Below are positions 24,747 to 34,950 of a DNA stretch of 64,000 nucleotides, piece by piece (position 1 is the first letter of the stretch; every line of letters starts with the position of its first letter). Origin of the DNA: Candidatus Iainarchaeum sp. (GTDB taxonomy: Archaea; B1Sed10-29; WALL01). The notes below the pieces were generated by a model. It saw only the letters and a list, made by a program, of their open reading frames with translations. It was not told where the DNA came from and ran no database searches. Location of the stretch: the NCBI GenBank assembly GCA_023129115.1, contig JAGMCR010000002.1, forward strand, positions 1 to 64,000, in the 5' to 3' direction. A program made the position numbers and the translations under genes.

Positions 24747-24936
24747 TCGGGAGCTCTAGTTTAGGACTCCGGAATGCACGAAAGGCAGAGCAGCCCAATT
24801 AAGCATATGCCGCAGTGAACACAGCCATTCTCCAACAGAAACAATAAAATAACTTTCTAGTGTAGTAGAAGATAAGAGTATATACCTCCTATTATAATAG
24901 AAAGTTATATAAATGATAAGACATAAAAATAAGACT
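24747..24936 (+). promoter_or_regulatory. Spacer and promoter of the island ATPase with inverted repeat
   Basis: An 11-base inverted repeat (ATAACTTTCTA at 24849-24859, TAGAAAGTTAT at 24898-24908) flanks AT-rich sequence. Its right arm overlaps the TATA-like GTTATATAA, 29 bases before the ATG at 24937. This suggests an operator over the promoter. No reading frame is supported in 24747-24936. Confidence 0.55.
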
Positions 24937-26268
24937 ATGCGATTAGGCATAGGCCCTCTGCATGCTCGATTGGGTGAAGAAGATATTGCAAGGGCTTTGA
25001 AAAAATGGAATCAATGGTGGGTTATTCAAAAAGTTCCAAAAAATAAGTTGGGGATTAACCGCAACACCTACATCAAGGCCCTGAATGAGATGGTGTCGGC
25101 AGAAGAAATCGTGTGTTTGACAGGGGTAAGAAGAAGCGGAAAATCAACTCTGTTGCATCAAACCATCCAATCATTAATTGATGCCGGCACTAGCCCAAAC
25201 AACATTTTGTATGTCAATCTTGATGATCCTGTATTCCCACGCTCTATTGAAGGACTTGGGGATATTTTAGGGAAATATGGAGAACTAAAAAATCCTACTG
25301 GCAAAATCTATGTATTTTTTGATGAGGTGCAATCCATTCCTAACTGGGAAAGTTGGTTAAAATCAAAATATGATCAAAAAGAGAACATCAAATTTTTTGT
25401 GACAGGATCCAATTCTTCTCTACTGTCCAGCAACCTGTCTACTCTCCTCACCGGCAGAATGCTGAAACTCACAGTAATGCCTTTATCATTTAATGAGTTC
25501 TTGAAATTCAACAAAGTTGAGTTCAAGGACCTTGATCTGGACCAATCAAGACTAAAGTACCATCTTAGTAGTTACTTGGGAGAAGGGGGTTTTCCTCGCC
25601 CCGTGCTTGAGAAAGACAAAAATATGAAACAACAGCTTTTGAGAGAATATTATGATGGGATTCTCTTAAGGGATGTCCTAAAGGGAGCCAAAATCAAGTC
25701 GCCATCGAAGTTAATCGATTTAGCCCAGTTCGCTGCAGCCAACATAGGCAATCTACTCAGCTATAATAAAATTGGGGGCGCATTAGGTATATCTGATGAC
25801 TCAGTTAAGGAATATCTCCGTCTTTTAGAGAATTCATTCTTGTTGTCACAGGTAGAATTTTTCTCTTATTCTGTGAAAGAAACTGTGTCCATACAAAAGC
25901 CCAGGAAGAACTATCTTATTGATACAGGGATGAGGAACGCAGCGGGCTTTAGATTTAGCCCCGATAAAGGAAGATTAATGGAAAACCTGGTGTTCTTGGA
26001 ATTAAAGAGGAGAGGGCATGATGTCCATTATTGGAAGGGGCAAAATGAGGTTGACTTTGTGTTCAGGGCCGGCAACAAACTCCAGCTGGTTAATGTATGC
26101 TACAATCTTGGGAAATCAAAGAAAAGAGAATTAAATGGATTAATCGAAGCAATGAAAAAATTCAGGATCAATAACTCGATGATTATAACGTGGAGTACAG
26201 AGGGACAAGAAAAAATAGGCAAGAAAATCATCAATTTCGTTCCCCTGTACAAATGGTTGTTGGAGTAA
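24937..26268 (+). CDS. AAA ATPase with DUF4143-type C-terminal domain
   Basis: The 443-residue protein has Walker A GVRRSGKSTLLHQ (about 53-65), Walker B IYVFFDEVQSI, a sensor-like FVTGSNSSLLSS, and the C-terminal LLENSFLLSQVEFFSYSVK and LIDTGMRNA...ENLVFLELKRRGHDVHYWKG. The last element resembles a nuclease-like fold (E-K-x-x-VDFV). This is the AAA_14/DUF4143 group, common and multicopy in archaea and often in mobile or variable loci. An ATG at 24913 would add eight residues, but the TATA spacing favours 24937. It is AT-rich and lies inside the tRNA-Gly island. Function is unknown. Confidence 0.85.
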   Translation: MRLGIGPLHARLGEEDIARALKKWNQWWVIQKVPKNKLGINRNTYIKALNEMVSAEEIVCLTGVRRSGKSTLLHQTIQSLIDAGTSPNNILYVNLDDPVFPRSIEGLGDILGKYGELKNPTGKIYVFFDEVQSIPNWESWLKSKYDQKENIKFFVTGSNSSLLSSNLSTLLTGRMLKLTVMPLSFNEFLKFNKVEFKDLDLDQSRLKYHLSSYLGEGGFPRPVLEKDKNMKQQLLREYYDGILLRDVLKGAKIKSPSKLIDLAQFAAANIGNLLSYNKIGGALGISDDSVKEYLRLLENSFLLSQVEFFSYSVKETVSIQKPRKNYLIDTGMRNAAGFRFSPDKGRLMENLVFLELKRRGHDVHYWKGQNEVDFVFRAGNKLQLVNVCYNLGKSKKRELNGLIEAMKKFRINNSMIITWSTEGQEKIGKKIINFVPLYKWLLE

Positions 26269-26361: not shown

Positions 26362-26625
26362 TCATCGGAAGAGCTTTTTGTATATGTTTTTCCTGTGGTC
26401 CACTAGAAGTACTTTGACCACTTTTTTCTTGAATACTACCTCGATTATCGCGCGGTATTCTCCGCCGCGTATTTTCCTAAGGCTGCACCCCCCAAGCGGG
26501 AAAGAATCATGGATTGGGTCATCGGTTAGTTTGCTGGCTTTTAGAACCAACTGTCTTGCCACCTTTTTTGGCAGCCCCCGGAGCTCTTTCCTTGCTTTCT
26601 TGTGCCACTTTACCTTGAAAGGCAT
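26362..26625 (-). CDS. RelE-family toxin
   Basis: This 87-residue basic protein starts MPFKVKWHKKARKELRGLPKK and has the RelE/ParE elements LKASKLTDDP, LRKIRGGEYRAIIEV and VKVLLVDHRKNIYKKLF. RelE toxins cut mRNA at the ribosome. The ATG overlaps the antitoxin stop by one base (TGATG); a GTG one codon earlier is possible. It is paired with the RHH antitoxin at 26625-26846 and carried in the tRNA-Gly island. Confidence 0.88.
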   Translation of the reverse strand: MPFKVKWHKKARKELRGLPKKVARQLVLKASKLTDDPIHDSFPLGGCSLRKIRGGEYRAIIEVVFKKKVVKVLLVDHRKNIYKKLFR

Positions 26626-26846
26626 CACAAACCAAACTCTTTTTCAATCTCTCCCTGCGAGACAAAGTCTTTGCTGCTGCTTCTCCTGACCGCCTCTGCA
26701 AGTATTTCTTCCTTGAGCTCGGGAGCGAACATCTTCCTCAACGCGTCACGCACGACCTCCGACTTATTGGGGTAAACCCCTTTGGACACAGAAGCGTCTA
26801 ACAGGCGGAACAATTCCTTACTCAATCGCACTTGCACCGTTTCCAT
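26625..26846 (-). CDS. Ribbon-helix-helix antitoxin
   Basis: A 73-residue protein beginning METVQVRLSKELFRLLDASV, a ribbon-helix-helix strand and helix, with NKSEVVRDALRKMF as the second helix. The acidic tail (SQGEIEKEFGL) would bind the toxin. It is the first gene of a two-gene operon with RelE. A 24-base palindrome 11 bases upstream of its ATG is the likely autoregulatory operator. Confidence 0.88.
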   Translation of the reverse strand: METVQVRLSKELFRLLDASVSKGVYPNKSEVVRDALRKMFAPELKEEILAEAVRRSSSKDFVSQGEIEKEFGL

Positions 26847-26932: not shown

Positions 26933-27041
26933 CTTTGCCGACTGGGCTTTTCTTTCGGGAAAGAAAAGCCTAGTGCGCTCGTGGAAAACAGCTGAAACTC
27001 AGCTGGCACGTTAGGTTTGGGGGCACAAGGCCCCCAGAGAC
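26933..27041 (-). repeat. Structured repeat element, copy 1
   Basis: This element has three hairpins. The first is at 26945-26970 (11-base perfect stem with AAAGAAAA arm), the second at 26989-27005 (CAGCTGA/TCAGCTG, loop AAC) and the third at 27018-27036 (TGGGGGC/GCCCCCA, loop ACAAG). The conserved linkers are CTAGTGCGCTCGTGG and GGCACGTTAGG. Copy 2 follows at 27065-27183 and a partial copy lies at 40002-40080. Stem sequences differ between copies while pairing is kept. It may be a small RNA or a folded recombination site. Confidence 0.6.
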
Positions 27042-27064
27042 AAGTTGTATTGTTCAAATAGTTT

Positions 27065-27183
27065 CTTTTGCCGACTGGGATTTTCTTTTCTAAAGAAAAG
27101 CCTAGTGCGCTTGTGGGGAACAGCCCAGACCTGGGCTGGCGAGGTAGGCTTGGAGGGTGCCGGTTGGCACCCCCCCAGAGGCA
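27065..27183 (-). repeat. Structured repeat element, copy 2
   Basis: It has the same order as copy 1. The first hairpin is at 27081-27099 (TTTTCTTT/AAAGAAAA), the second at 27121-27138 (CAGCCCAG/CTGGGCTG) and the third at 27155-27172 (GGGTGCC/GGCACCC). The linkers CTAGTGCGCTTGTGG and GGCGAGGTAGG match copy 1. It lies between tRNA-Gly and copy 1. Confidence 0.6.
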
Positions 27184-27505: not shown

Positions 27506-28030
27506 GTGGGAATATCAAGCCTGATTTATGACTCGTGGAAAATGGAGTGCCAGTTCCGCAAATACGACGGGATGCTGCCAATGCTCGAGGTAGTCAACCT
27601 CAAGGGCAAAGTCCTCGACGTCGGCATCGGCTCCGCGCTCTTCGAGGAATACCTCCGCGGAAAAGGCATAATCCTCGACGTCGTGGGAATCGACGAGGAC
27701 CCAATCATGCTCAAGACCGCGGCAAAAAAAGGGTACAATGCCGTGGCCGGCAGCGCCGAGCGGCTGCCCTTCGAAGACAACGAGTTCGACTTCGTGGTCT
27801 GCCTCGACACACTCCACGCCACCGAGGCCCGCAGGGCAATCAATGAAATGAAGCGCGTGCTGAAGCCGAGGGGCCACATCCTCCTCTCCAAGTTCTGCAA
27901 CGTCTTCAACAAGGCCCAGGCAATGGAAGAGCTCGAAGAGCTTGCGTACGGCATGCAGCTAATCAGCAAAAAAGTCGTTGGCCGCTCCGACGACGAGCTC
28001 AGTGCCGCCCTCCTCTGCAGAAAGGAATGA
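27506..28030 (+). CDS. Class I SAM-dependent methyltransferase
   Basis: The 174-residue protein has a compact methyltransferase core: GKVLDVGIGSALFEEYLRG (SAM loop), VVGIDEDPIMLKTAAKKG, SAERLPFEDNEFDFVVCLDTLH and MKRVLKPRGHILLSKF. GTG at 27506 is chosen because a TATA-like box lies 25 bases upstream; an ATG 12 codons later is the alternative. It is followed by a small membrane protein with only a 4-base gap. The substrate is unknown; the small size suits an RNA, lipid or small-molecule methyltransferase. Confidence 0.85.
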   Translation: MGISSLIYDSWKMECQFRKYDGMLPMLEVVNLKGKVLDVGIGSALFEEYLRGKGIILDVVGIDEDPIMLKTAAKKGYNAVAGSAERLPFEDNEFDFVVCLDTLHATEARRAINEMKRVLKPRGHILLSKFCNVFNKAQAMEELEELAYGMQLISKKVVGRSDDELSAALLCRKE

Positions 28031-28034
28031 AAAA

Positions 28035-28343
28035 ATGCAAGTCGACATCGTGCTCATCGAGGCCTTCGGGACCGCATTCTTCTTCCTGCTCTTCATTGTC
28101 TCTGCGTACTTCTACGGCTCGAACCCAAAGAACAAAATCCCAATCTACCTCTCCATAGCAATGATGTTCCTCGCGTTCCGCGAGGCAATGTACTTCCTCT
28201 CGGACAGCGGCGTCCTCGACGCCGGCTTCAGGGCCTACGGCGGGATAGTCTCGTTCTTCGCAGGAGTCCTCTTCCTCTACGTATTCATCGCCGAAGAAAA
28301 AGCAATGAAGGACATCCGCAGAATCAGGAACGCGTTCAAATAA
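28035..28343 (+). CDS. Small three-helix membrane protein
   Basis: A 102-residue protein with three hydrophobic helices (from IEAFGTAFFFLLFIVSAYFY, YLSIAMMFLAFREAMYFL and YGGIVSFFAGVLFLYVFIA) and a basic C-terminal tail. The chosen start is ATG at 28035, 4 bases after the methyltransferase stop; a longer frame reaching into that gene is unlikely. It is probably co-transcribed with the methyltransferase. The family is not recognised. Confidence 0.75.
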   Translation: MQVDIVLIEAFGTAFFFLLFIVSAYFYGSNPKNKIPIYLSIAMMFLAFREAMYFLSDSGVLDAGFRAYGGIVSFFAGVLFLYVFIAEEKAMKDIRRIRNAFK

Positions 28344-28388: not shown

Positions 28389-29429
28389 CTACTTAAACTT
28401 CTTGGCTCCACCCATTGCCCTCACGTGCTCTTTGGCTTTTTTGTCCTTGCCCTTCAGCTGCCGTTCAATCGCTTCTGGCTTGAACCCGGGCTCGTGCTCG
28501 TGCCCCAGCTTCTTCATCTCCCAGAGCATATCCCGCTTCTTTTTGTCTCCCCAGTACTTCTGCTTCTCCCAAATCTCTGCCAGCTTGTCCTCCGGGAAGT
28601 AGCCAGTGTCGTGCAGCCTCTTGAGCTCGCCGCCGAGGATGCCCGCGGCCTCCCTAATATTTATGCGGTTCTGCTCCAGCTGGCCCAGCTTGAACGCGAC
28701 CGAGCGCCCAAGCAGCTCCCTGTGGTCAATCTTCCTTATGTCCTCCGCCAGCTTGTTCTTCTCGGCAAAGCTGCCGAGTGCCATCATGTCAGCTCCGCTG
28801 AGCCGCTCGTTCCTCAGCCTCCCCTTCATCGCCTCGAGGTTGGCTATAGTGCGCAGGTGCCCAAGCTCCCGCTTGTAAAAATGGACTATGAGCGGCGTGT
28901 TCTCATGCGGCTCGCCAGAAAGCCCGTACTTTTCCAGAACCTTGTTTTCTTCCTTGCGTATGTCCCCGTAGTACTGGTCGATGCCCTTGAACTTGTTCGC
29001 CCAGAACTTCTGTCTCGCGCTCCTGTAAACCGACTTTGGCACGTCCTCGCCCTTGTCAGCCGCCCGCTGCTGCCGCTCCACAAGACTCCAAATCGTTTTC
29101 ATGTGCTCTTCCTTGGGCTCGGCCTTTACCTTCCCCTCCTCAAAGAACTCCGGGTTTTGTGACGTGAAAATCATGCTTGGAAAGCGCGTCCTCCTGTCCT
29201 GGAACTCCATGATTTTGGGGTCCATCGACGGAGTCGCGTCAATAGTTTTTTTCCCGTACCTCCTAATCAGCCGCTGCTTCCTCTCCCAGTACATCCTGCC
29301 CTCCTTCGTGCGGTCGTTTGGAGTGGCCCCCATAATATGGTGCATCTCGCGCCCCACCTTCAGGGTTATCTCCGCGTTCGCGGCCTCCATGTAGCGCATC
29401 GGCACCATCGCCCGGGCCTTTTCCATCAT
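28389..29429 (-). CDS. Lineage-specific charged helical protein, possible second half of a zincin
   Basis: A 346-residue, Lys/Arg/Glu-rich, largely helical protein with no signal or membrane segment. Its ATGATG start overlaps the stop of the HEYSH protein by one base. Early on it has RYMEAANAEITLKV, which resembles the E-A-x-x-A helix that supplies the third zinc ligand in gluzincins. The two genes may therefore be one peptidase split in two, or a pair of interacting proteins. A 6-G run 10 bases upstream could allow frameshifting. The rest is unknown. Confidence 0.65.
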   Translation of the reverse strand: MMEKARAMVPMRYMEAANAEITLKVGREMHHIMGATPNDRTKEGRMYWERKQRLIRRYGKKTIDATPSMDPKIMEFQDRRTRFPSMIFTSQNPEFFEEGKVKAEPKEEHMKTIWSLVERQQRAADKGEDVPKSVYRSARQKFWANKFKGIDQYYGDIRKEENKVLEKYGLSGEPHENTPLIVHFYKRELGHLRTIANLEAMKGRLRNERLSGADMMALGSFAEKNKLAEDIRKIDHRELLGRSVAFKLGQLEQNRINIREAAGILGGELKRLHDTGYFPEDKLAEIWEKQKYWGDKKKRDMLWEMKKLGHEHEPGFKPEAIERQLKGKDKKAKEHVRAMGGAKKFK

Positions 29430-29809
29430 CAGTCGTCGCCCCCCATCGCCACGTTCTGGAGCGCGTGCGAGTACTCGTGCACGAGGATTGCGCCCATTCT
29501 CTCGTTAATTGTGCCGTCGCTGTGGAACAAATTCTCTGGCACCTTGATGAACTCGCCGACCTGCCTCCCGCCGCGCGTCAGGCGCTCGTGCACGCCCATG
29601 GTCTTATACTTTCCCGACCGCGACAATTCACTTCCCGGCTCAACAATCAGCGGAATCTTCCCCTCGGCAGTCCGCTTCTTCAATTTCTTGACATACCCCG
29701 GGTCCGGCCACGGGTGCTTCGTGTCCTTGTGCTTCTCCGCCAATACGTCCATGGCCTCGCCAATCAATGCCACAAACGCCTGCAGGTTCTTTTCCCTGTC
29801 GTTTCCCAT
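29429..29809 (-). CDS. HExxH zincin-like protein (126 aa)
   Basis: This short protein ends in ILVHEYSHALQNVAMGGDD, a zinc-binding HExxH helix, only 12 residues from the stop. A normal zincin continues well past this point, so the protein looks cut off; the continuation may be the overlapping 346-residue gene. The start ATG at 29809 has GGTGA 5 bases upstream; earlier in-frame ATG/GTG codons overlap that site. It is in a leftward run with two peptidases, 16 bases after an M24 peptidase gene. Confidence 0.65.
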   Translation of the reverse strand: MGNDREKNLQAFVALIGEAMDVLAEKHKDTKHPWPDPGYVKKLKKRTAEGKIPLIVEPGSELSRSGKYKTMGVHERLTRGGRQVGEFIKVPENLFHSDGTINERMGAILVHEYSHALQNVAMGGDD

Positions 29810-29825
29810 ACGCATCACCTTATGA

Positions 29826-30827
29826 CTACAATGCCTTAAATCCCTTACTGGTCAAAACCCCGGTGTACTCAATCCGCGCCCCTTGGCCCGGGCCGACCAG
29901 CCCCGGCTCAAGCGTGAACACCATCCCCTCCTCCAGCACGTCATCGCTCTCCGGCCCAAGGCTCGGCGACTCGTGGATCGCAAGCCCAACGCCGTGGCCC
30001 AAGCCATAGGGCCAATACTTCGCATAATTCCCGAAGCCCTTCTTCACAAGTTCGTACAACTCCTTGGCCTTCATGCCCGGCTGCGCCTCGCGCAGCGCCA
30101 GCCTGCTCGCCCCGAACACCGCCAGCAGCATCTTTTCCGTCCTCTTGTCCGGCGACCCGCACCGCGTGACCGTGATGTCACTGCAGTATCCACCCACAAT
30201 GCACCCAGTGTCGATAATCACAGTGTCTTTTTTCCCAATCCGCTTCGCAGTGGGCCGCGTGTGAATCAGTGTCGTGCTCTTCCCCGCCGCGACAATCGGG
30301 TCAAACGCAAGCGCCAGGCCGCGCTTTGCGTAGCCCGAGACCAGCTCGGCGTAAACTGCTTTTTCCGTCCTGCCCAGCAACGGCAGCTTTTTCAATACCC
30401 CCCTTGTTTCTGCGCACGCCATCGAAATATTCTTTATTTCCCCCCTCTCCTTGACCGCCCGCACCTTCTTCAGTTCCTTGCTTATGTCCACCAGGCGCGC
30501 GCCGCTCTTCTTCCTTATCCTCTTCGCCGCGCTCGCCGGCAAATAATCCATGTTCACGCCGATTTTCTTGGCCCTCCTCTTCTTGAGCTCGCGGTAAACT
30601 GTGTCCTCGCCCTTCTTCGGCACGAGCCGCGCCCGCCTCTTCTGTTTAGTGTCCCGCGTTATCAGTATCGGCTCCCGCCCGACCTTCCACAGCACCGTGC
30701 CGCCCGCCTGCCTCGCGTCCATCCCCGAGTAGTACTGCAGGTTCATGTCCGGCGCGTCGCCGCTGCTCGGGATGAGCACAGCGTCACACTTTTTTTCGGC
30801 GAGCGTGTCGAGCTTCCACGTCCTCAT
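29826..30827 (-). CDS. M24 family metallopeptidase (Xaa-Pro aminopeptidase-like)
   Basis: The 333-residue pita-bread fold peptidase keeps all five metal ligands: D206 and D217 (VIIDTGCIVGGYCSDITV), H278 (YGLGHGVGLAIHE), E307 (FTLEPGL) and E320 (RIEYTG). The N-terminal creatinase-type domain is present. It probably removes N-terminal residues ahead of proline or trims peptides in the cytoplasm. ATG at 30827 is chosen because it overlaps the upstream gene's stop by 4 bases; a longer upstream frame is just shadow of that gene. Confidence 0.9.
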   Translation of the reverse strand: MRTWKLDTLAEKKCDAVLIPSSGDAPDMNLQYYSGMDARQAGGTVLWKVGREPILITRDTKQKRRARLVPKKGEDTVYRELKKRRAKKIGVNMDYLPASAAKRIRKKSGARLVDISKELKKVRAVKERGEIKNISMACAETRGVLKKLPLLGRTEKAVYAELVSGYAKRGLALAFDPIVAAGKSTTLIHTRPTAKRIGKKDTVIIDTGCIVGGYCSDITVTRCGSPDKRTEKMLLAVFGASRLALREAQPGMKAKELYELVKKGFGNYAKYWPYGLGHGVGLAIHESPSLGPESDDVLEEGMVFTLEPGLVGPGQGARIEYTGVLTSKGFKAL

Positions 30828-31970: not shown

Positions 31971-33158
31971 TCAGCCGAACACGAGCGAAAGGAAAAACAG
32001 GATTATGATGATTATGACTATCAGCGAGAGAACGCCGGCGCCGCCTGCCCCGCCTCCGCCTCCACCGCCACCGCCGCCAAGTTTCCTGGCGCCGAGCTGG
32101 CCCTCTGCAATCATTGCCTCGAACCTGCTCGCGCCTTCTGCCTCGCCCTCTCCCGCGGCGGCAAGTAGCCTCTCGCCCTCGCCCGGCTCGGCAAGGCCTT
32201 CGCCTTCTCCCGCGGCGGCGAGGAGGCCCTCGCCCTCTTCTGGCTGTTCTTCCTCTTCCGCTGGAGTTGGCTCTTCTTCTTCGGGCCTTCTGCGTGGCCT
32301 CTCCGGCTCTTCTTCCGCCCGCTCTCCCGGCCGCCTCCGTGGCGGGCGCGTTGGCTCTTCTTCTCCCGGCCTTCTGCGCCTTCTTGGTGGCCTCTCCTCT
32401 GCTTCTTCTTCTGGCGGCCTTCTCCTCCCCCATTCTTCGTGCCTGTTCCCGGCATCAGTTATGAGTGTCTCCAGCTCCGAGAGTATTCTCTCGCCGTCCC
32501 GCGTGTGGGCTATCATGTACCTTGCGCCGACTTCTTCGTTGAGTGGGCGCGAAAGAGTTACCCCGGTAGGTGTCAGGCCCGCGTCAATAAAGTCCTTCCT
32601 CGTCTTTGCCCACGTCTTAATGTCCCACTTTTTCCGCGTCTCCATAATATTCCGCGTTTCGGTGAATGAGAGGGCCCGGCTGAAGTGGTCTTTCTGTAAA
32701 TCCTGGAGCCTCTCCAGCATGGAGTTGGCTTCCCCGTGGTCTTCGGTCGTGCTCGCGCGGTGGATGAGCCTCTCGACTGCGTTTTCGGCCTCCTGGAACT
32801 TGGCCCCGCTCTGGTTATAGTAGTCCTCCTCCAGCACAACGCGGCCCCTGCGCCTTCTCCCCTGGTGGCCATGCCGCCCCTCGACCACCTTGATGTATGT
32901 TGGCCTTAGGGACTCAATGCCCCTGTCGACGCGGACCTTCTGGGACGCCATCGCCTTCTGGTAGCCCTTGACAGCGGCCTTCCTCTGTTTTCTCGTGTAG
33001 CCCAGCGCCTTCATGAGGCTTTTCCGGTCCTTCCACTTGGGCTTGTAGGTCTTCTTGATGCCCTTTGCCTCAATCTTTTTCTGCTTTTTGTACCTTACTT
33101 CCTGAAGCTCGTAAATTGTCTTCACTTTCTTCTTGAAGAGCTCCCGAATCCTTGGCAT
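31971..33158 (-). CDS. Tail-anchored, low-complexity charged protein
   Basis: This 395-residue protein begins MPRIRELFKKKVKTIYELQE and has a basic/helical N-terminal half. An Arg/Glu/Pro-rich low-complexity region follows (blocks of RRRPGEEEP and AAAGEGEGL type). Next is a run of ten glycines and a C-terminal hydrophobic helix (VLSLIVIIIIILFFLSLVFG) with no residues after it. It is therefore probably a C-tail-anchored membrane protein facing the cytoplasm. It shares MPRI and a basic start with the coiled-coil gene upstream. The family is not known to me. Confidence 0.75.
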   Translation of the reverse strand: MPRIRELFKKKVKTIYELQEVRYKKQKKIEAKGIKKTYKPKWKDRKSLMKALGYTRKQRKAAVKGYQKAMASQKVRVDRGIESLRPTYIKVVEGRHGHQGRRRRGRVVLEEDYYNQSGAKFQEAENAVERLIHRASTTEDHGEANSMLERLQDLQKDHFSRALSFTETRNIMETRKKWDIKTWAKTRKDFIDAGLTPTGVTLSRPLNEEVGARYMIAHTRDGERILSELETLITDAGNRHEEWGRRRPPEEEAEERPPRRRRRPGEEEPTRPPRRRPGERAEEEPERPRRRPEEEEPTPAEEEEQPEEGEGLLAAAGEGEGLAEPGEGERLLAAAGEGEAEGASRFEAMIAEGQLGARKLGGGGGGGGGGAGGAGVLSLIVIIIIILFFLSLVFG

Positions 33159-33255
33159 TCAAACACTGCCGGCAACCCGTTGTTGCAATTATGTTTTTTG
33201 GTGTTTTTAAGTATTCATTGCGGTGGCTGGCGCATTGCACTCATTCATCTCAATC

Positions 33256-34950
33256 TCACGGGCGGTTAATCACCGTGTTCAGGAGGTCGTACATGCCCTG
33301 GAGCGCCGTCTGGTTCCCGTCCAGCGCGTCCCTCTTGAGGTCCGCGTACTGGCCCCTCTCGGCAGTGTCCATGGTATAGCTGGCGCTTATTTCATCCATC
33401 TTGGCGATGTTCTGGCTCACCCGGTCCAGCCCCCTCGTGAGGTTCCTCGTCAGGTCGCCAATGTTCTTCTTGGCCCCGTCCAGTTCTTTTTGGTGCTTGA
33501 GCTTCTTGTCCTCCACCGTGTTGAGCGTGTCCTTCAGGTCGGCGATTGTGTCCCTGTGCGCGTTCTGCAGCTCCGGGCTCCTCGCCATCATGGCGTCGAG
33601 GTTGCTCACGACCTTCTGGTAGTGCCCGACAGCATCGTTGAGCCCTTCCCTGGAAATGTCCTTGTGGCTGCTGAACGCAGTGAGCTGGTCCATCCCCTCC
33701 TTCAGGGTGGCCAGCGCGGCATCCACGGACATCTCGTACCCCTTCCTGCCAGGAGCGCCCGGCGCAGGCAGCTTTTTCTGTATCTGCCTGATGGCCTTGT
33801 TCGCCTTCACTGCATTGTTGTGCGTCCTGCGGACCTGCCTGGCGGACTCGGCCAGGGTATGCGAGATAAGTGTCGCGGCGCCCCTAATGTTCTCCAGCTC
33901 TGCGGTCATTGCCTCGTTCTGCCTCTGGTTGTGCCTGTAAGTCTTGTGGTACCCAATCCTGCCGCCGGACTGCGACACAGTGTCCAGGAAGTCAATGAGG
34001 TTGTCGGCGCTCCGCTCCACCTTCTGAACGTGGAGGCCGGCGCGCTGGTTCATGGTCGAGCGCATCGTGTGGTAGTTCTGCATGGTCTTGATTATGTCGC
34101 GCCGCATCTCCGGCCCAAGCCGCTTTATGCTGCCGTCCTTTTCCTTGAACAAGCCGTTCAAAAGCTCAAGCGTGCCGCCCCGCTGCGCGGCCTCGTTGAG
34201 CGTGAAGTCCTTGTACTCCTCCAGCGCCTCAACGTGCTCGTCGAGCAGCGACTTCGCGTCGTAAATGTTTTCGTCGATTATCTTGATTTGGTGGCTCAGC
34301 ATCCTCACCCGGTCTGCCAGCTCGAGCCCCCTCTCGCCGGTCTGCGTCGACTTGCGCCCGCGCAAGACCTTTCTCTGCTGCGTGAGGTCCGTCCGCAGGG
34401 CCTTTTGGTCCCGCATGTAATTCTTTACCGACGCCATGTTCCTGACGTTGTTCTGGAACGAGGCGATGTTCGCCAAGTGCTGCGCGATGCCCTGGAAAGC
34501 ACCCGAGTCCATTTTCGCGATGGTCCGCAGCTGAACCTTTGTGCCATTAATGGACTGTGCCGTGTACGGGCTCGGCGCCTCGTCAGTCGCCTTCCTCTCT
34601 GTCATGAACTCAAGCAGCTTGTGGTTCTTCACCAGCTTGGCGACCTTCTGGTCAATCTTTTTCTCTTGCTTCTGGTACTCCGCTTTGTTCACGACGTACT
34701 GCCTGTAATTCTTGAGGCCGCCTTTCTTGAAGAAAGAAACGATTCTGAAGCGGTCCGGCTTTTTGACCACGTCCGTGGGGAGCCACTCCCTTGCGCCAGG
34801 CACCAGCACCAATGGCTCTGCCCCCGAAGCCACCATCATTTTATTGGTCATGGTGTGGATGTTTTCCATCTCTGGCAGGAGGCCATGCTTTCTCCTGTGC
34901 CTCTCTGCGCGGCCTTCCAAGCTGAACATTCGTTTTAGGATACGGGGCAT
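33256..34950 (-). CDS. Large coiled-coil protein of unknown function
   Basis: A 564-residue, almost entirely helical and charged protein, with long heptad-like stretches (for example 85-120, 170-260, 430-520). There is no signal peptide or membrane helix. It starts MPRILKRMFSLEGRAERH with GGTG 7 bases before the ATG. An antisense frame of similar length on the plus strand is Leu/Val/Arg-rich, starts without a ribosome site and is judged a shadow. Together with the 395- and 346-residue proteins it forms a lineage-specific cluster next to peptidases; it may be a scaffold. Confidence 0.75.
   Translation of the reverse strand: MPRILKRMFSLEGRAERHRRKHGLLPEMENIHTMTNKMMVASGAEPLVLVPGAREWLPTDVVKKPDRFRIVSFFKKGGLKNYRQYVVNKAEYQKQEKKIDQKVAKLVKNHKLLEFMTERKATDEAPSPYTAQSINGTKVQLRTIAKMDSGAFQGIAQHLANIASFQNNVRNMASVKNYMRDQKALRTDLTQQRKVLRGRKSTQTGERGLELADRVRMLSHQIKIIDENIYDAKSLLDEHVEALEEYKDFTLNEAAQRGGTLELLNGLFKEKDGSIKRLGPEMRRDIIKTMQNYHTMRSTMNQRAGLHVQKVERSADNLIDFLDTVSQSGGRIGYHKTYRHNQRQNEAMTAELENIRGAATLISHTLAESARQVRRTHNNAVKANKAIRQIQKKLPAPGAPGRKGYEMSVDAALATLKEGMDQLTAFSSHKDISREGLNDAVGHYQKVVSNLDAMMARSPELQNAHRDTIADLKDTLNTVEDKKLKHQKELDGAKKNIGDLTRNLTRGLDRVSQNIAKMDEISASYTMDTAERGQYADLKRDALDGNQTALQGMYDLLNTVINRP

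What the first reader, a model, noticed from the sequence alone, without database searches (positions are those of the whole stretch)
28389..29809. Possible split or frameshifted zincin across a one-base overlap and a 6-G run
The upstream gene ends 12 residues after HEYSH, and the downstream gene begins with a helix RYMEAANAE that could supply the third ligand. A 6-G run sits 10 bases before the junction. This could be programmed frameshifting, a recent break, or two interacting polypeptides.
Basis: partly seen in the sequence, partly recalled or inferred. Interest (0 to 1): 0.6.

Follow-up and report, generated by a model that had tools for sequence, protein, structure and literature searches.

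The report
Zinc-protease-like gene split in two
A predicted zinc-binding protein of an uncultivated Diapherotrites-group archaeon, made as one chain in six relatives, is here cut into two overlapping genes between its two sets of metal-binding residues, at a spot that also looks like a working restart site for translation.

Summary
On the minus strand a 126-aa ORF with HEYSH (29809-29429) overlaps by one base (TGATG) a 346-aa ORF (29429-28389), with a 6-G run 9 nt before the second ATG. Six relatives in the same order carry the protein as one uninterrupted chain, five of them between the same M24 peptidase and methyltransferase genes. Across seven members only P, G, P, H, E, H and E are invariant; the final E is the one in RYMEAANAE. 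So this is a gluzincin-like site (HExxH + Glu) split across two frames in this lineage. The family has no Pfam/NCBIfam match and was found in 7 of 11 genomes of the order and in none of 286 others. How it is expressed is unresolved. The G run is a strong Shine-Dalgarno-like site next to TGATG, a layout random frameshifts give in about 0.3-0.7% of cases; this favours two chains made by termination-reinitiation. The same run is a -1 slip heptamer (G GGG GGC), but no stem-loop or conserved slip site was found. A recent mutation or a single-base assembly error cannot be excluded: one genome of the species is held. No other split was found among 346 genes compared.

The parts
29429..29809 (-). Upstream ORF, 126 aa: N-terminal half of the zincin-like domain, HEYSH (ligands 1 and 2, catalytic Glu); ends 11 residues after HEYSH
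   Evidence: about 61% identity over 119-120 residues to G001's single chain
28389..29429 (-). Downstream ORF, 346 aa: starts in the loop after the active-site helix and carries the invariant Glu (RYMEAANAE) and a long helical C-terminal region
   Evidence: 38% identity to G001, no acceleration relative to G001
29439..29444 (-). 6-G run: part of the in-phase -1 heptamer G GGG GGC and of a Shine-Dalgarno-like sequence (GGGGGCGA, duplex -9.9 kcal/mol) for ATG 29429
29427..29431 (-). TGATG stop/start overlap (1 nt shared)
29826..30701 (-). Conserved neighbour: M24-type metallopeptidase
   Evidence: Pfam PF00557 9.7e-42; beside the zincin in G001, G003, G009, G002 and G007
28035..28343 (+). Convergent neighbour: small membrane protein
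   Evidence: same place in G001, G006, G009
27506..28030 (+). Neighbour: class I methyltransferase
   Evidence: PF08241 5.7e-21; syntenic in relatives

Best explanation
The ancestral gene encodes one gluzincin-like protein (HExxH, 17-26 further residues, then a Glu ligand on a predicted helix). In the window's lineage a net frame change in that loop (8 nt more than in G001 and G003 between HExxH and Glu) divided it into two cistrons. Most likely both are still translated: the ribosome ends at TGA, and the G-rich Shine-Dalgarno-like run plus the overlapping ATG restarts it (termination-reinitiation). The two chains would then associate to rebuild the metal site. Shown: the homology, the split, the invariant ligands and the TGATG/Shine-Dalgarno anatomy. 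Inferred: that both chains are made, that they associate, that zinc is bound, and that the break is real in the organism.
For: Six single-chain relatives; HExxH and the downstream Glu invariant in seven members. The duplex energy of the G run with the anti-Shine-Dalgarno (-9.9 kcal/mol) is reached by 7% of matched gene starts and 0.5% of internal ATGs. Simulated random frameshifts give a coupled stop/start overlap with such a site in 0.31%, or 0.3-0.7% when placed at homopolymer runs. The downstream part is as similar to G003 (29.1%) as the intact G001 is (29.1%), and its GC3 (0.80) equals that of its neighbours. The break lies in a loop of variable length. TGATG coupling with intragenic Shine-Dalgarno motifs is known in archaea, and such pairs often encode heteromeric complexes (PMC6728339, PMC10666635).
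Against: One genome only, so a recent break or an error would show the same absence of decay. The energy and simulation tests were chosen after seeing the site. The anti-Shine-Dalgarno sequence was assumed, since the 16S end was not in the sampled DNA. There is no structure or expression evidence. Two genomes of the order (G005, G008) lack the gene at this place, so its loss is tolerated.
Confidence: 0.42

Rival explanations
1. Recent real frameshift in the G run or loop: the gene is decaying, or switches phase by run length, in this strain.
For: Relatives are intact; G005 and G008 lack the gene at this locus, so it is dispensable; homopolymer runs are typical indel sites; one break among 346 compared genes is an ordinary rate.
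Against: No further stops in 346 codons, no acceleration, normal GC3; TGATG plus a strong Shine-Dalgarno-like site would be a coincidence at about 0.3-0.7%.
Confidence: 0.25
2. Single-base sequencing or assembly error in the G run of this draft genome.
For: The break coincides with a homopolymer; the genome is an incomplete draft (19 contigs, 88.6% complete).
Against: No other split was found in 346 matched genes of about 102,000 residues; matched genes hold some 150 G/C runs of 6 or longer; the coupled start site would be a coincidence.
Confidence: 0.17
3. Programmed -1 frameshifting (or polymerase slippage) at G GGG GGC makes the full-length protein alongside the short one, as for fucA1 of Saccharolobus solfataricus.
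For: Heptamer of form X XXY YYZ in the right phase and direction; an in-phase G6 is expected by chance in about 1% of 25-codon overlaps, though any X XXY YYZ in about 21%; the fused product falls in the family's HExxH-Glu spacing range; archaeal precedent (PMC8211752).
Against: No stable structure downstream (energies equal to background; z -0.56); the slip site is not present in relatives, which are in one frame; Y = G is not the usual A/U (PMC8211752).
Confidence: 0.16

Closest known systems
Gluzincin metallopeptidases (HExxH + Glu)
   Same: HExxH and a downstream invariant Glu on a predicted second helix
   Different: No significant sequence match to any Pfam, NCBIfam or PDB family; spacing variable; here split across two ORFs
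fucA1 alpha-L-fucosidase of Saccharolobus solfataricus (-1 programmed frameshifting)
   Same: Archaeal gene in two ORFs related by -1 with a homopolymer slip heptamer; relatives full length
   Different: fucA1 has A-AAA-AAT, a 40-base overlap, a putative stem-loop and experimental proof; here a G run, no stem-loop, and a restart site at the junction
TGATG/ATGA overlapping gene pairs translated by termination-reinitiation
   Same: 1-nt overlap with an intragenic Shine-Dalgarno-like motif
   Different: The pair derives from one ancestral protein and divides its predicted active site

Membership tests
Gluzincin-type metalloprotease | HExxH motif | tested here: met
   Invariant H, E, H in seven members
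Gluzincin-type metalloprotease | Third ligand Glu on a helix after the motif | tested here: met
   E138 (G001 numbering) invariant; helix 134-157 in a low-confidence model
Gluzincin-type metalloprotease | Zincin fold | tested here: inconclusive
   Models with mean pLDDT 53.5 and 39.9; fold search without significant match
Gluzincin-type metalloprotease | Zinc binding and proteolysis | not testable with these tools
   needs purified protein
Any named Pfam or NCBIfam peptidase family | Score above the curated cut-off | tested here: not met
Programmed -1 frameshifting | In-phase slip heptamer X XXY YYZ | tested here: met
   G GGG GGC
Programmed -1 frameshifting | Stimulatory structure 5-9 nt downstream | tested here: not met
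Programmed -1 frameshifting | Conservation of the two-frame layout | tested here: not met
   six relatives in one frame; no other genome of the species held
Termination-reinitiation gene pair | 1- or 4-nt stop/start overlap | tested here: met
   TGATG at 29431-29427
Termination-reinitiation gene pair | Shine-Dalgarno motif in the upstream gene (helpful, not essential) | tested here: met
   -9.9 kcal/mol, with an assumed anti-Shine-Dalgarno
Termination-reinitiation gene pair | Coupled translation | not testable with these tools
   needs a reporter assay

The most novel reading that the evidence does not exclude
A natural split zincin: the HExxH helix and the third-ligand helix of one metal site are made as two polypeptides by coupled translation from an overlapping gene pair, and the enzyme exists only as a heterodimer.
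Probability: 0.25. Interest if true: 0.65.

Novelty: new variant of a known kind. Interest (0 to 1): 0.36.

Why it matters
If both chains are made and associate, a catalytic metal site would be shared between two co-translated chains that relatives make as one, a clear case of gene fission inside an active site. If full-length protein is made by slippage, it would add to the very few archaeal -1 recoding cases. Independently, the protein belongs to an unnamed HExxH/Glu family found here only in one archaeal order.

Tried and rejected
Pfam, NCBIfam and PDB sequence searches gave only chance-level matches. Structure models were too poor for fold comparison; the PDB list is meaningless. The first genome scan with the upstream ORF found nothing; the second, with an alignment, returned only G001 and G003 under their public names. 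Viral contigs: no match. Apparent further splits in this genome (L073, L111, L060) were antisense shadow ORFs, adjacent genes or unconvincing on inspection; the candidates on the G001 side were only partly inspected. A downstream frameshift-stimulating stem-loop was sought and not found. No reads and no second genome of the species were available.

Full report
Observation. The window lies on contig 12 of a 1.25-Mb draft genome. On the minus strand, ORF 29809-29429 (126 aa) contains HEYSH and ends 11 residues later; ORF 29429-28389 (346 aa) begins on the last base of its stop codon (TGATG). The junction reads GCG ATG GGG GGC GAC GAC TGA in the upstream frame; the 6-G run ends 9 nt before the second ATG. 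The downstream frame is -1 relative to the upstream frame.

Relatives. Both ORFs match one and the same open frame in G001 (same genus, 437 aa) and G003 (same family, 480 aa). Public records for these are DPANN group archaeon S014_61_esom and Candidatus Diapherotrites archaeon AUK171 (the positions match). More distant single-chain members occur in G006, G009, G002 and G007. An M24 peptidase gene is next to the zincin in G001, G003, G009, G002 and G007, and the methyltransferase gene lies close on the other side in all six. G005 and G008 have the peptidase and methyltransferase genes close together (458 and 37 nt) without the zincin. A profile of seven members finds the family in 7 of 297 genomes, all in this order of 11.

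The metal site. In the alignment of seven members the invariant columns are P34, G71, P90, H110, E111, H114 and E138 in G001 numbering. E138 aligns with the Glu of RYMEAANAE, on the downstream ORF. Between HExxH and this Glu lie 17 to 26 residues in the relatives, and 26 in the window if read through with a -1 shift. A low-confidence model of the G001 protein (mean pLDDT 53.5) has a helix 102-122 with HEYCH, an uncertain loop 123-133 and a helix 134-157 with E138: the split falls in that loop. No family library or PDB sequence search gives a significant match, so the protein is best called gluzincin-like, with fold and activity untested.

Where the frame changes. Frame-0 homology runs to the G run and frame -1 homology starts at the ATG; the window has 8 nt more than G001 or G003 between HExxH and Glu. 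Any cause must act in those dozen bases.

Is the genome noisy? Comparing about 735 kb of this genome with 558 kb of G001, 346 G001 genes had a match; the zincin is the only one found broken, the other candidates on this genome's side being shadows or neighbours on inspection. Matched genes hold about 150 G/C runs of six or more. Systematic homopolymer error is therefore unlikely; a single error is not excluded.

Is the second half decaying? It is 29.1% identical to G003, as is the intact G001 protein, and its third-position GC equals that of neighbours. It has either been kept in use or was cut off recently.

Restart versus slip. The G run pairs with the standard archaeal anti-Shine-Dalgarno at -9.9 kcal/mol, an energy reached by 7% of the ATG starts and 0.5% of the internal ATGs sampled (the 16S end itself was not seen). 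Random in-silico frameshifts yield a 1- or 4-nt coupled overlap with such a site in 0.31% of cases, and 0.3-0.7% when placed at homopolymer runs (the G6 figure is 1 of 139). These features were noticed first and tested afterwards, so the figures are a guide. TGATG coupling is established in archaea and the intragenic motif often helps (PMC6728339); [quoted passage not shown] For programmed -1 frameshifting the heptamer form is right, but some X XXY YYZ heptamer is expected in 21% of such overlaps and an in-phase G6 in 1%; no stable structure follows, and relatives offer no conservation. The fucA1 case (PMC8211752) shows that such genes can be real in archaea.

Verdict. A lineage-specific split of an otherwise single-chain, order-restricted, gluzincin-like protein, between its ligand pairs. 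Two chains by termination-reinitiation is the best-supported reading (0.42); recent break (0.25), assembly error (0.17) and slippage (0.16) remain. Read data at the G run would settle most of it.

Noticed in passing
window 26362-26846 (-): ParE-like toxin and CopG/ParD-like antitoxin genes overlapping by 4 nt, close to the zincin locus.
   Followed up: partly
window 24913-26268 (+): AAA_14/DUF4143 ATPase gene next to the toxin-antitoxin pair.
   Followed up: partly
window 31971-34950 (-): Two long ORFs without significant Pfam matches, one rich in Arg/Pro/Glu with a Gly run and a C-terminal hydrophobic tail, the other coiled-coil-like.
   Followed up: no
window 26960-27124: Two copies of a 33-nt direct repeat 132 nt apart between the toxin-antitoxin pair and the methyltransferase gene.
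   Followed up: no
L141:661-1089 (G005): In G005 a different small ORF (142 aa) sits between the methyltransferase and the peptidase genes, where relatives have the zincin.
   Followed up: no
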